Shown here in pieces: positions 50,982 to 54,528 of a stretch of 64,000 nucleotides of DNA. A model generated the notes under the pieces. That model made no database searches, was not told where the DNA came from, and saw only the letters and a program-made list of their open reading frames with translations. Source of the stretch: Persephonella sp. IF05-L8 (GTDB lineage Bacteria; Aquificota; Aquificia; Aquificales; Hydrogenothermaceae); contig NZ_JNLJ01000005.1 in NCBI RefSeq assembly GCF_000703045.1, positions 411,023 through 475,022 of the forward strand, read 5' to 3'. Position numbers and translations under genes: made by a program. Position 1 is the stretch's first letter; every line of letters begins with the position of its first letter.

Positions 50982-51824
50982 ATGAAACCAAAGGTAAAAA
51001 ATTTCTTATCTGAAGATGTTACAAAAATGAAAGCTATGCTCAGGATGCTTAATCTCCATACGGTTTGCGAGGAAGCATCCTGTCCAAATATAGGAGATTG
51101 TTTTGGAAGAAGAACAGCAACATTTATGATAATGGGTGATAGATGCACAAGGAATTGTGCCTACTGTGATGTTTCCCATGATAAACCACTACCACTTGAC
51201 CCTTCTGAACCTTATAACATTGCAAAAGCTGTAAAATATCTAAATCTTAAACATGTTGTTATAACATCTGTGAACAGAGATGACCTTCCTGATGGTGGAG
51301 CATCTCATTTTGCACGGGTTATCAGAGCAATCAGGGAAGAAAAGCCTGATTGTAGCATAGAGGTGCTTATTCCGGATTTTCTGGGGGATAAAGAAGCACT
51401 TAAGATTGTTGCAGATGCAAAACCTGAAGTAATTAACCATAACATTGAAACAGTTCCTTCTTTGTTTCCTGTGGTAAGACACAGAGGCGATTATCAAAGG
51501 TCATTACAGGTAATAAAATGGATTAAGGAGCTTGATGAAAATATAACCTCAAAATCAGGCATTATGGTTGGGCTTGGAGAAACAAAAGAAGAGATATTGC
51601 AAGTAATGGAAGACTTAGCAAAAGTAAACTGCGAGATACTAACAATAGGGCAGTATCTCAGACCATCAAAAAATCATTATCCTGTCAAAAAATATTACAC
51701 AGAAGAAGAATTCAAAGAATTAGAAAAGATAGGATACCAGATAGGTTTCAAACAGGTTTTTAGCGGAACACTTGTAAGAAGTTCATTTCATGCAGATGAG
51801 GTTTATTATCAGCTTAAAGGGTAA
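50982..51824 (+). CDS. lipA: Lipoyl synthase
   Basis: Radical SAM enzyme that inserts two sulphurs into octanoyl chains on lipoyl proteins. The auxiliary cluster CEEASCPNIGDC and the SAM cluster CTRNCAYC are both present, as are GGGASHFARVI-like and NHNIETVPSLFPVVR. ATG 50982 (281 residues) follows GGAGG; a longer frame starting at 50934 is rejected. It overlaps the hypothetical gene on the minus strand by 11 bp at its 3' end. Lipoate would serve 2-oxoacid dehydrogenases or the glycine cleavage system. Confidence 0.97.
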   Translation: MKPKVKNFLSEDVTKMKAMLRMLNLHTVCEEASCPNIGDCFGRRTATFMIMGDRCTRNCAYCDVSHDKPLPLDPSEPYNIAKAVKYLNLKHVVITSVNRDDLPDGGASHFARVIRAIREEKPDCSIEVLIPDFLGDKEALKIVADAKPEVINHNIETVPSLFPVVRHRGDYQRSLQVIKWIKELDENITSKSGIMVGLGETKEEILQVMEDLAKVNCEILTIGQYLRPSKNHYPVKKYYTEEEFKELEKIGYQIGFKQVFSGTLVRSSFHADEVYYQLKG

Positions 51825-52167
51825 TAGGTTCTAAAACTTGTTTATAAATAATAGGAGCCAATTTTAGATTTAACTCATCACTAAAGATGAAAAAATATAT
51901 ATCGTATATTCTATAGACAAATAAGTATATAAGCTTTTTCCCGATAGAAACCTTATAGTAATACAGAACTTTTTCCTTTAAACGGTTTCTATATTCCAGA
52001 ACCTTTTCTATATGAGAAACATATTTGTAGAAGTTATCAGGATTTTCTTCAACAAAGGGAGCAAACTTATAGGAGATTAAAGAAACATCTTTGTATACGA
52101 AAATAGCTTCAATATGCTTGAAATTCTTCCCTATTATCTGATTTATTCGTTTTCTCAGCTGCTCCAT
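51814..52167 (-). CDS. Uncharacterised protein overlapping the ExeA-like gene
   Basis: A 117-residue protein of unknown function. It has no membrane segment beyond a hydrophobic stretch near residues 78-98 (LIYLFVYRIYDIYFFIF). It overlaps the end of the ExeA-like gene by 59 bp, suggesting strict coupling to it; its start lacks a clear ribosome binding site. The reading frame is intact and in the same direction as the ExeA-like/SPOR pair, which supports a real gene. It could be a partner of the cell-wall ATPase. Confidence 0.5.
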   Translation of the reverse strand: MEQLRKRINQIIGKNFKHIEAIFVYKDVSLISYKFAPFVEENPDNFYKYVSHIEKVLEYRNRLKEKVLYYYKVSIGKKLIYLFVYRIYDIYFFIFSDELNLKLAPIIYKQVLEPITL

Positions 52168-53326
52168 GGTTTATTTTTATGAACTCTTTTTTAACCCAAC
52201 CCTGGAGGGTACCTTTTTTGATTTTTAACCAGTCTCCTGCCTCCTCTATAATCTCTATTTTATCACCTTTTTTTAATTTGTTAATAATTTTTGAGTTTAT
52301 AGATGGATTTTCTCTTACATTTAATATATTTGCAACCACATTTCCAGATTTACCACTAATACTACTAATTATAGAATTATTAATCTTTTGAATATTTGTT
52401 GTTCTCTCATTTTTATCTTTTTGTGAGAAATAAAAATAACTCAAGCCGCCGACTAATATAACAAATAGAACCAGCAAAATAGCTGTTAAAACTGGATAGG
52501 TTCTTTTAGATTTCTCTCTTAATGCCAGACTTTCAGCTGCACTTTCTATATTTTCTTTATCAATCTGGTGTTTATTTTCAACAAAAGCAGACATAAGGGC
52601 TCTTTCCATTAATAGATTAATCAGCCTTAGATTACCCTGTGTATACTTGTAAATAGCCTTATAAGCTTTTTCTGTTATTCTTATTGTTGAATTACCTGCC
52701 TTGGATAATCTGTAATTGATATAATCAACCATTTCCCTGTAATCCAGATTGGATAGATGGGTCAAAATGCTTATCCTTTGTCTGAGTTGTCTAAGGTCTG
52801 TTGAATTCAGTTTTTCTTCTAATTCCGGCTGTCCAAGAAGTATTATCTGTAATAATTTTTCTTTATCTGTTTCCAGGTTTGATAAAATTCTAAGTTCTTC
52901 AAGGGTTTCCACAGGTAAATTCTGGGCTTCATCAATAATCACAAGAACTTTTTTACCTTCTTTTCTTTTTTGTATCAGGAAATCTCTTAATGTTGAAAAA
53001 AGTTTGTTTTTAGAAACCTTATCAGATAGCTGTATTCCAAAGTCCTCTAATATTGCCATAAATAATTCTTCTGGGGATAGATTTGGGAAGAGAATATAAG
53101 CATACTCCACATTATCAGGAATTTGACTGAGGAATTTGCGAATTGTTATTGTTTTTCCTGTTCCAGGTTCTCCTATAATTACTGCAAAACCCTCTTCTGA
53201 GCTAAGTAGATACTCAAGGGAAGCAAGGGCTTCCTGATGGACAGATGACATATAGAAAAAATCCACATCAGGTGTAAGTTTAAACGGATTTTCCTTTAAA
53301 TTAAAAAACTCTAAAAAATCCATCAT
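52109..53326 (-). CDS. ExeA/GspA-like ATPase with membrane span and SH3 domain
   Basis: A 405-residue AAA-type ATPase. The family start FFNLKENPFKLTPDVDFFYMS (about 8-28), Walker A GEPGTGKTI (52-60), Walker B VLVIIDEAQNL (about 125-135) and LLGQPELEEKL follow ExeA, which helps a secretin cross peptidoglycan. After a membrane helix (VLTAILLVLFVILVGGLSYF, about 283-302), the C-terminus is a bacterial SH3 domain (VVANILNVRENP to GWVKKEFIKI) instead of ExeA's usual peptidoglycan-binding domain. It overlaps the AAA-SPOR gene by 4 bp. Confidence 0.9.
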   Translation of the reverse strand: MMDFLEFFNLKENPFKLTPDVDFFYMSSVHQEALASLEYLLSSEEGFAVIIGEPGTGKTITIRKFLSQIPDNVEYAYILFPNLSPEELFMAILEDFGIQLSDKVSKNKLFSTLRDFLIQKRKEGKKVLVIIDEAQNLPVETLEELRILSNLETDKEKLLQIILLGQPELEEKLNSTDLRQLRQRISILTHLSNLDYREMVDYINYRLSKAGNSTIRITEKAYKAIYKYTQGNLRLINLLMERALMSAFVENKHQIDKENIESAAESLALREKSKRTYPVLTAILLVLFVILVGGLSYFYFSQKDKNERTTNIQKINNSIISSISGKSGNVVANILNVRENPSINSKIINKLKKGDKIEIIEEAGDWLKIKKGTLQGWVKKEFIKINHGAAEKTNKSDNREEFQAY

Positions 53327-54528
53327 TTCCCTGTCCTTTTTATTATTGCAGTCAGTTTATACTTTTTTAGCTTATTTTTTATCTTAATGGCTTTTTTCTT
53401 ATCCTCAGCCCTGATTACAACAAGACTAAGTCCTTTTTTAGTCTTAATTACAGTTATATTTGGAAACTCTTTTTTTAGTCTCTCAGCAAATTTCTTTGCG
53501 TTATCAAAATTCCTGAATGCAGCCACCTGAACAAGATAATTATAAACTGGCTGATAAAACTTTATTTCAGGTGTATTAAAAGATAATTTATCTAACTGCT
53601 GATTAATCTCCTGAATAATACTTTTTTCATCAAAATTTACCTTTTTAACAAGGGGTTTTTTATTTTTTTTCGGTTTAGGCTTAATAGGTAAACCTTCTGT
53701 AATTATACCTTCTTCAGGTAATTTTTTGTCTAATTTTTTGATTTTTTCTACTATTTCTTTCTCTTTTGGAGAATTAAAATAATTAAATCCGTAATAAATT
53801 CCGTATGAAATTACACTTATAATTGCAAAAACAACAATTCCCATTAAAACAGGCTTTAAAAAATTCGGTTTATATCCTAAGTCTTTTGGCTCTATAGGAA
53901 ATTTGCCTATTCTCAGGATGGTATTTTCTGCCTCTTCTATAGAACCACCTGTCATTTTGTAAAGTATTTTCAAGGCTTTTCCTTCAATCTGGGAACCATA
54001 TTTATCTGTGAAATATTTTTTGAACTCTTTAAACTCAGGAGGTTTAACCTCAAGAATAAAATTTATATTGCCTTCTATTTTTCCTATCTTAAATGGGTTT
54101 AGCTTTTCCTTCAGCTGTGGTGTGCCTATCACAAAAACAGATAATTTCTCCTTTATATTTAATAGATGTGCAAGTTCTGACAGCTCTTTTTCTGTCAAAT
54201 TTTGTGCATTGTTTATAACAATAAATACTCTGCCATCAAAATTTTCCAGAAAATCTATAAATTTAATTAAAAATTCCTCTTTGGATATTTCTGCATCTGC
54301 TTCTATCCCAAGGGCTGAAAGGATTTCATTTTTCCATAAAGGTGTAGCTTCAATGAAGATTTTTTTATCAAATGATGAAGAAAGATTATTGATTGCACTG
54401 GTTATAACATATTTTTTACCTATACCTTTTTTGCCATAAAGAATTCCAAAAATATTGCTATCTTTTAGAAGATTAAATATAAGCAGATATATATCCTTTT
54501 TTTGCTGCCCGTATATCTTTGAGAGCAT
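53323..54528 (-). CDS. Degenerate AAA-like protein with membrane span and SPOR domain (DamX-like layout)
   Basis: A 401-residue protein with the same arrangement as its neighbour but a broken active site. The P-loop position reads GKKGIGKKY (32-40), with Lys in place of Ser/Thr, and the Walker B position reads VFIVINNAQNL, with Asn-Asn for Asp-Glu. A membrane helix is at about 225-248, a Lys/Pro-rich linker to about 320, and a SPOR domain (YNYLVQVAAFRNFDNAKKFA onward) at about 328-400. DamX has an AAA-like domain plus SPOR and acts at the septum. The start is ATG 54528. It likely forms an active/inactive hetero-complex with the ExeA-like protein. Confidence 0.85.
   Translation of the reverse strand: MLSKIYGQQKKDIYLLIFNLLKDSNIFGILYGKKGIGKKYVITSAINNLSSSFDKKIFIEATPLWKNEILSALGIEADAEISKEEFLIKFIDFLENFDGRVFIVINNAQNLTEKELSELAHLLNIKEKLSVFVIGTPQLKEKLNPFKIGKIEGNINFILEVKPPEFKEFKKYFTDKYGSQIEGKALKILYKMTGGSIEEAENTILRIGKFPIEPKDLGYKPNFLKPVLMGIVVFAIISVISYGIYYGFNYFNSPKEKEIVEKIKKLDKKLPEEGIITEGLPIKPKPKKNKKPLVKKVNFDEKSIIQEINQQLDKLSFNTPEIKFYQPVYNYLVQVAAFRNFDNAKKFAERLKKEFPNITVIKTKKGLSLVVIRAEDKKKAIKIKNKLKKYKLTAIIKRTGK

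What the first reader, a model, noticed from the sequence alone, without database searches (positions are those of the whole stretch)
52109..54528. Paired active and inactive AAA proteins with SH3 and SPOR cell-wall modules
Neighbouring genes share the layout AAA, membrane helix, wall-binding domain. One has intact Walker motifs and an SH3 domain; the other has GKKGIGKK for the P-loop and NNAQ for Walker B, with a SPOR domain. This looks like an ExeA/DamX-type split system in which a dead subunit targets septal glycan and a live one remodels or opens the wall. The extra 117-aa gene overlapping the end by 59 bp may be a third part.
Basis: partly seen in the sequence, partly recalled or inferred. 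Interest (0 to 1): 0.55.

Follow-up and report, generated by a model that had tools for sequence, protein, structure and literature searches.

The report
Paired live and dead wall-anchored AAA proteins
Two neighbouring bacterial genes make a working and a burnt-out version of the same membrane motor protein, each with a different cell-wall grip, and relatives place the working one beside pilus and secretion-pore genes, so the pair probably helps set such a pore or pilus in the cell wall.

Summary
P1 (52109-53326, minus strand) is an AAA protein with intact motifs, one membrane helix and an SH3 domain. P2 (53323-54528) has the same layout, a ruined ATP site and a SPOR domain. P2 overlaps P1 by 4 bp, P1 the 117-aa P3 by 59 bp.

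In five other genera 13 of 13 inspected P1 loci lie beside pilus or secretin genes (11 MSHA-type, 1 T2SS, 1 PilQ-type); in the window's genus 0 of 11 do, its MSHA locus being about 410 kb away. A GspB-like gene precedes the MSHA secretin. P1 is best read as an ExeA/GspA/MshM-like assembly ATPase, not a strict GspA.

P2 is a family-level elaboration under purifying selection. The catalytic Glu is gone in 18 of 18 firm P2 relatives, the P-loop in 14. A second Glu-less partner, closer to P1, precedes P1 in genera g4/g5. P1 often occurs without P2, so the pair is not obligatory, and neither wall module is constant: P1 of genus g2 shows no SH3, and probable P2 relatives carry SH3 in place of SPOR. 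P3 has a roadblock-like predicted fold. Nothing was tested experimentally.

The parts
53323..54528 (-). P2: 401-aa degenerate AAA + membrane helix + SPOR protein
54412..54435 (-). P2 degenerate P-loop GKKGIGKK (K in place of Thr)
   Evidence: sequence
54202..54213 (-). P2 degenerate Walker B NNAQ
   Evidence: sequence
54100..54450 (-). P2 AAA_22 domain (residues 27-143)
   Evidence: AAA+ fold in model
53794..53850 (-). P2 membrane helix (residues 227-245)
53344..53541 (-). P2 SPOR domain (residues 330-395)
   Evidence: E 1.3e-9
52109..53326 (-). P1: 405-aa AAA ATPase + membrane helix + SH3 protein
53150..53173 (-). P1 Walker A GEPGTGKT
52922..52933 (-). P1 Walker B DEAQ
52808..53197 (-). P1 AAA_22 domain (residues 44-173)
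   Evidence: E 6.8e-30
52436..52492 (-). P1 membrane helix (residues 279-297)
52175..52324 (-). P1 SH3_3 domain (residues 335-384)
   Evidence: E 8e-14
51814..52167 (-). P3: 117-aa protein, roadblock/LC7-like predicted fold, overlaps P1 by 59 bp

Best explanation
P1 is an ExeA/GspA/MshM-like assembly ATPase: its AAA+ domain works in the cytoplasm, it crosses the inner membrane once and grips peptidoglycan with an SH3 domain, and it helps place an outer-membrane secretin, most likely that of the MSHA-type pilus, through the wall. P2 is a diverged paralogue that no longer hydrolyses ATP (and in this genus probably does not bind Mg-ATP). It forms mixed oligomers with P1, as non-hydrolysing subunits do in other AAA+ machines, and adds a second wall anchor (SPOR). 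P3, a roadblock/LC7-like cytosolic protein, probably made from the same transcript, regulates the complex. Shown: sequence anatomy, motif loss, conservation, synteny of P1 with secretin and pilus genes in relatives, purifying selection, predicted folds. Inferred: the P1-P2 complex, secretin placement, wall binding, which of the genome's three secretins is served, co-transcription and the P3 role.
For: 13 of 13 P1 loci inspected in g2 (5), g7 (1), g12 (5), g17 (1) and g21 (1) lie within 6 kb of pilus or secretin genes: 11 with MSHA-type genes (large pilin-like gene, MshN, MshL), one with GspF-E-D-C, one with a PilQ-type secretin (5 of the 12 g12 genomes with P1 were inspected; G068 counts twice). 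P1 and MshL-type secretins co-occur across 136 genomes: 32 both, 2 P1 only, 12 MshL only, 90 neither, Fisher p 7e-19, not corrected for kinship; by genus 7/1/4/18, p 0.001 (lists drawn by hand). A T2SSB (GspB)-like gene lies just before MshL in the 21 loci, and 20 of 20 of these given to Pfam match PF16537 at E up to 0.05 (the G127 gene was not given), as ExeB partners ExeA and the secretin (PMC4098917, passages). P2 sits directly upstream of P1 on the same strand in 10 of the 14 genomes of the genus, in G080, and in G065, G066, G069. Catalytic Glu: 28 of 28 P1 keep it; 18 of 18 firm and 4 of 4 probable P2 relatives, and 4 of 4 upstream partners in g4/g5, lack it. Those g4/g5 partners match a P1 profile far better than a P2 profile (1e-46 to 1e-60 against 1e-12 to 1e-14; the P1 profile holds the P1 of the same genomes) and fall on the P1 side of the tree. 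dN/dS of P2 0.09-0.14.
Against: In the window's own genus none of 11 inspected P1 loci lies beside pilus genes, nor do the 4 in g4/g5. P1 of genus g2, which supplies 5 of the 13 syntenic loci, shows no SH3 match in the three proteins scanned. A P1-like AAA protein of G080 without SH3 (L102) has no such neighbours. P1 does without P2 in many genomes, and MSHA loci exist without a detected P1 (e.g. G010, G104). Deletion of mshM in Vibrio cholerae did not lower MshA pili (PMC4624765, passages). P1 lacks the PG_binding_1 and C39-like domains of GspA and shows only short chance pieces in BLASTP with E. coli GspA. The tree has long branches in P2 and warnings of long-branch joining. No complex was modelled.
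Confidence: 0.5

Rival explanations
1. P2 is a DamX-like cell-division or pole-marking SPOR protein whose AAA domain serves only as scaffold, and it merely shares an operon with P1.
For: SPOR domain above cut-off in P2; P2 without P1 in G085; SPOR proteins are recruited to denuded septal glycan (PMC9712689, passages). In E. coli damX lies downstream of the hofMNOPQ-aroKB block.
Against: The AAA part of P2 has the lowest dN/dS of its three parts in the three pairs tested (0.03-0.08), so it is not a mere relic, though P1's AAA part is tighter still (0.02); the SPOR match is not kept in all P2 relatives; E. coli DamX shows no AAA domain.
Confidence: 0.22
2. The pair regulates cell-wall enzymes (local opening or remodelling), with no specific tie to secretins.
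For: Two different wall-binding modules; in G066 the P1 gene is next to an L,D-transpeptidase (YkuD) and an M99-type carboxypeptidase gene.
Against: No hydrolase domain in P1, P2 or P3; no wall enzyme was recognised by eye among the window's neighbouring ORFs (not all were scanned); the secretin/pilus neighbourhood recurs in five genera.
Confidence: 0.13
3. P1 is an XrtA/PEP-CTERM-type exopolysaccharide ATPase.
For: TIGR03015 is its best NCBIfam match, 269.8 bits.
Against: Below the curated cut-off of 324.5; no exosortase (PF09721) match in the genome (the same search rang in 1 of 14 control genomes). Exopolysaccharide genes nearby were looked for by eye only.
Confidence: 0.04

Closest known systems
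ExeA/GspA with ExeB/GspB (type II secretion secretin assembly)
   Same: Cytoplasmic AAA_22 ATPase, one membrane helix, periplasmic wall-binding module; a GspB-like gene lies beside the MSHA secretin in the same genome; T2SS genes beside P1 in one relative locus (G068 C183).
   Different: SH3 in place of PG_binding_1 and the C39-like domain; mostly MSHA neighbourhood; a second, catalytically dead AAA partner with SPOR, which the passages read on GspAB do not describe.
MshM of MSHA pili
   Same: ExeA-like ATPase gene close to MshL, MshN and MSHA pilin genes in relatives.
   Different: In the window's genus it lies away from the MSHA locus; it carries a wall domain and a dead partner. MshM is listed among components of unknown function (PMC9815625, passage). 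The MshM sequence itself was not compared.
DamX (E. coli) / PA5037 (P. aeruginosa)
   Same: C-terminal SPOR; in E. coli encoded near hof (pilMNOPQ-like) genes.
   Different: E. coli DamX has no detectable AAA domain. That PA5037-type homologues carry an AAA domain is recalled, not tested.
AAA+ assemblies with inactive subunits (RFC, ORC/Cdc6)
   Same: P2's model matches Cdc6/ORC/RFC/MuB-type AAA+ folds (Z 15-18); active and inactive subunits mix in such machines (recalled).
   Different: Those act on DNA; here both members are membrane-anchored and carry wall modules.

Membership tests
GspA/ExeA | Cytoplasmic AAA ATPase with intact Walker motifs | tested here: met
   P1: (28 of 28 P1). P2 fails this.
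GspA/ExeA | PG_binding_1 (PF01471) and C39-like periplasmic domains | tested here: not met
   against E. coli GspA; P1 has SH3_3, P2 SPOR
GspA/ExeA | Gene linked to gspB and a secretin | tested here: inconclusive
   GspB-like gene and secretin within 6 kb of P1 in G009 and G018; not beside P1 in the window's genus
MshM | ExeA-like ATPase in an MSHA locus | tested here: inconclusive
   Beside MSHA-type genes in 11 inspected relative loci, not in the window's genus (0 of 11)
DamX | C-terminal SPOR after a membrane helix | tested here: met
   P2:
DamX | Alignable with E. coli DamX | tested here: not met
   no alignment above chance
XrtA/PEP-CTERM ATPase TIGR03015 | Curated score 324.5 and an exosortase in the genome | tested here: not met
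   269.8 bits; no PF09721 match
Pseudo-ATPase (P2) | Loss of catalytic and metal-binding residues | tested here: met
   genus g1: T59 to K/R in 12 of 12, E133 to N in 12 of 12, D132 to N in 11 of 12, no Arg finger and no sensor-2 Arg in 12 of 12
Pseudo-ATPase (P2) | No ATP binding or hydrolysis | not testable with these tools
   Needs a binding assay
Roadblock/LC7 (P3) | Roadblock fold | tested here: met
   Model pLDDT 92.4; MglB 3t1r_B Z 10.7, rmsd 3.0, 107 aligned; Mon1 rows score as high or higher (up to 12.2), so roadblock against longin is open
Roadblock/LC7 (P3) | Match to a sequence family model | tested here: not met
   No Pfam or NCBIfam match up to E 1

The most novel reading that the evidence does not exclude
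A two-component, membrane-anchored AAA+ ring in which one subunit burns ATP and grips the wall by SH3, and a purpose-made dead subunit, whose metal site is replaced by a fixed positive charge (Thr to Lys/Arg with the acidic pair turned to Asn), grips denuded glycan by SPOR. A roadblock protein ties it to the genome's small GTPases, so that pilus secretins are inserted at chosen places. The dead partner was invented at least twice beside the same live ATPase.
Probability: 0.2. Interest if true: 0.7.

Novelty: new variant of a known kind. Interest (0 to 1): 0.5.

Why it matters
How secretins and pilus machines cross the peptidoglycan is unsettled, and MshM is listed among MSHA components of unknown function (PMC9815625, passage). 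A natural live/dead AAA pair with two different wall anchors, and relatives that carry only one of the two or another anchor, make the role of ATP hydrolysis and of wall binding separately testable.

Tried and rejected
Obligate pair: rejected, each gene occurs without the other. Relic or pseudogene: rejected by purifying selection. XrtA association: rejected. E. coli DamX homology: no similarity found. Search for the P2 layout outside the phylum: in 198 genomes of the phylum of G136 (the genome of L124, titled Nitrospira sp.), 118 have some match, but none of the listed matches spans both AAA and SPOR (the list was cut after the best matches). Literature: searches listed no title or abstract start describing an AAA live/dead pair with SPOR; several lists were capped (for example 15 of 31, 10 of 24), and only passages of the papers cited were read. 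In one search the P1 list undercounts: G021 and probably G020 carry contig-end P1 fragments beside MshL and were counted as MshL only; G064's contig ends before the place where P1 would lie; G019 and G063 are contig-end fragments and were counted as P1. At G063 the upstream side of P1 is off the contig, so nothing is said on P2 there. The last table (P-loop codons) was anchored at the wrong place for most rows and was not used.

First, alignment A1 holds g2 and g7 sequences, so the matches to them are circular; a profile without G065's gene finds it at 1e-13, and a profile of genus g1 alone finds G080, G066, G068, G070 and G069 at 2.6e-19 or better, so these stay as firm relatives. Second, of the four g3-g5 genes only G076's is clearly nearer to P2 than to P1; G077, G072 and G071 are about as near to either, so the four are called probable and counted apart. 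Third, P1 of genus g2 shows no SH3 in the three proteins scanned. For this the confidence in the best explanation was lowered from 0.55 to 0.5 and two rivals raised by 0.01-0.02.

The tree: P2 rows have long branches and the tool warns of false joins; no topology test was run.
Full report
What is there. The finding's coordinates hold two genes on the minus strand. P2 (53323-54528) comes first, P1 (52109-53326) follows with a 4-bp overlap, and P3 (51814-52167) overlaps the end of P1 by 59 bp. P1 has AAA_22 and SH3_3 domains, P2 has AAA_22 and SPOR, all above Pfam's cut-offs. Each has one strong hydrophobic helix between the AAA and the wall domain. P1 keeps Walker A, Walker B, the arginine finger and the sensor-2 arginine; of the six residues compared, P2 keeps only the P-loop lysine.

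Conservation of the pair. I inspected ORFs in 40 stretches, most from relatives. P2 lies directly upstream of P1 in 10 of the 14 genomes of the genus, in G080 (g7) and in G065, G066 and G069 (g2); in G068 two contigs start inside a P2-like tail just before P1. Of the other four g1 genomes, G091's contig ends at P2, G085 has P2 without P1, G086 has P1 without P2, and in G093 (55% complete) neither was found. G085 and G086 show their single gene at the same place between an SDR gene and lipA; they are 74 and 70% complete.

Which sequences count as P2. A profile of genus g1 alone finds the G080, G066, G068, G070 and G069 genes at 2.6e-19 or better; a profile with g2 and g7 but without G065's gene finds that one at 1e-13. 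With the 12 of g1 these make 18 firm relatives (G068 and G070 cut at contig ends). SPOR passes Pfam's cut-off in the window's P2, G069 and barely G080 (21.4 against 21); it is below cut-off in G066 and unmatched in G065. Four genes of g3-g5 are probable relatives: the tree groups three of them with P2 (the fourth was not in it), and those of G076 and G077 sit next to the SDR and metallo-hydrolase genes that flank P2 elsewhere, but only G076's is clearly nearer to P2 than to P1 by profile. All four carry two SH3_3 stretches.

How the dead member decayed. In one alignment the catalytic Glu of Walker B is present in 28 of 28 P1 and 2 of 2 lpt-linked paralogues, and absent from 18 of 18 firm and 4 of 4 probable P2 relatives. 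The P-loop Lys-Thr pair is intact in 4 of the 18 (all g2) and in 2 of the 4; it is altered in 14 and 1, and missing by truncation in 1. In genus g1 the Thr is Lys or Arg in 12 of 12 and the acidic pair is Asn-Asn in 11 of 12 (Asp-Asn in G085). So hydrolysis was probably lost first and binding later, more than once. Replacing the metal-binding Thr by a cation while the acids become neutral suggests that a fixed charge took the place of the metal; this is inference. Selection is purifying: dN/dS 0.09-0.14 for P2, 0.06-0.17 for P1, 0.03-0.09 for lipA; by part, 0.03-0.08 for the AAA domain of P2 and about 0.02 for that of P1.

A second dead partner. In the g4/g5 genomes G074-G077 P1 has another upstream partner with an intact P-loop, Asn or Asp for the catalytic Glu in 4 of 4, and an SH3 domain. 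A P1 profile finds these four at 1e-46 to 1e-60, a P2 profile only at 1e-12 to 1e-14, and the tree puts them on the P1 side (with long-branch warnings). A hydrolysis-dead partner therefore seems to have been set beside P1 twice.

What P1 belongs to. Of the P1 loci inspected outside g1, g4 and g5, 13 of 13 have pilus or secretin genes within 6 kb: 11 MSHA-type, one GspF-E-D-C (G068 C183) and one PilQ-type (G050). In g1 it is 0 of 11 and in g4/g5 0 of 4, two of these on short contigs; a further P1-like gene of G080 without SH3 has none. SH3 was found in the P1 proteins scanned from g1, g7, g12 and g17 (one each) but not in the three g2 P1 proteins scanned. The own genome holds three secretins: an MSHA-type locus with MshG, MshE, pilin, MshL, MshN and a large pilin-like protein (C5:44-56 kb), a pilMNOPQ-like locus and a T2SS locus (labels by order and similarity, partly recalled; domains of the first). 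Across 136 genomes P1 and MshL-type secretins go together: 32 both, 2 P1 only, 12 MshL only, 90 neither, with the undercounts told under Tried and rejected and no correction for kinship. A 140-190-aa gene just before MshL matches the GspB domain PF16537 at E up to 0.05 in 20 of 20 members scanned, best 6e-8; in the window's genome 3e-4, below the curated cut-off. In Aeromonas, ExeA (AAA ATPase with a wall-binding domain) and ExeB form the complex that assembles the secretin ExeD (PMC4098917, passages); GspA/GspB layouts vary widely (PMC9239104, passages). mshM is a mandatory gene in a model of MSH systems (PMC6668835, passages), its product is similar to ExeA (PMC4624765, passages), is listed among components of unknown function (PMC9815625, passage), and its deletion did not lower pili in Vibrio.

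P3. It is found in 11 of 14 genomes of the genus, more weakly in G080 (8e-12) and G114 (5.5e-4). It follows P1 directly in the 10 genomes with the full pair and is absent from the G085 and G086 loci. Its AlphaFold2 model (pLDDT 92.4) matches roadblock and longin-type domains; MglB scores Z 10.7 and Mon1 up to 12.2 (Foldseek gave E-values of 6.5e-4 and weaker). The own genome has three small GTPase-like genes matching PF08477, two over its cut-off, and two of the three lie beside genes that look roadblock-like by eye. A regulatory role is inference.

Model of P2. AlphaFold2 gives pLDDT 79, pTM 0.53. The first 220 residues match Cdc6, ORC, RFC, MuB and TnsC AAA+ domains (Z 15-18). Such machines mix active and inactive subunits (recalled), which makes a mixed P1-P2 ring plausible; no complex was modelled.

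Verdict. The septal-targeting and obligate-split parts are not. I place it as a new variant of the GspA/MshM kind of assembly ATPase, with a dead partner that I did not find described in the searches listed.

Noticed in passing
L101:6202-7125 (G000:C1:14201-15124): A third AAA paralogue (307 aa, intact motifs, C-terminal hydrophobic segment by eye, no wall domain) lies between an lptA-like gene and aroA; the same order is seen in G080 (L103).
   Followed up: partly
L101:9464-10264: Another SPOR protein (266 aa, E 1.1e-13) lies between an lptF/G-like gene and argS.
   Followed up: no
L185:4930-6399 (E. coli K-12 gspA): E. coli GspA reads IIIENAH at Walker B, so the catalytic Glu is missing there too, while its P-loop is intact.
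   Followed up: no
L111:7369-7851 and homologues: A GspB-like (PF16537) gene precedes the MSHA-type secretin in the 21 loci; 20 were scanned and all 20 match at E up to 0.05.
   Followed up: partly
L087:2060-4200 (G066): An L,D-transpeptidase (YkuD) with an NTF2-like tail and an M99-type carboxypeptidase gene lie next to P1; the same tail domain is fused to a P1-like AAA protein in G080 (L102:4558-5949), followed by related genes.
   Followed up: no
L147 and L152 (G000:C1): Small GTPase-like genes beside genes that look roadblock-like by eye.
   Followed up: no
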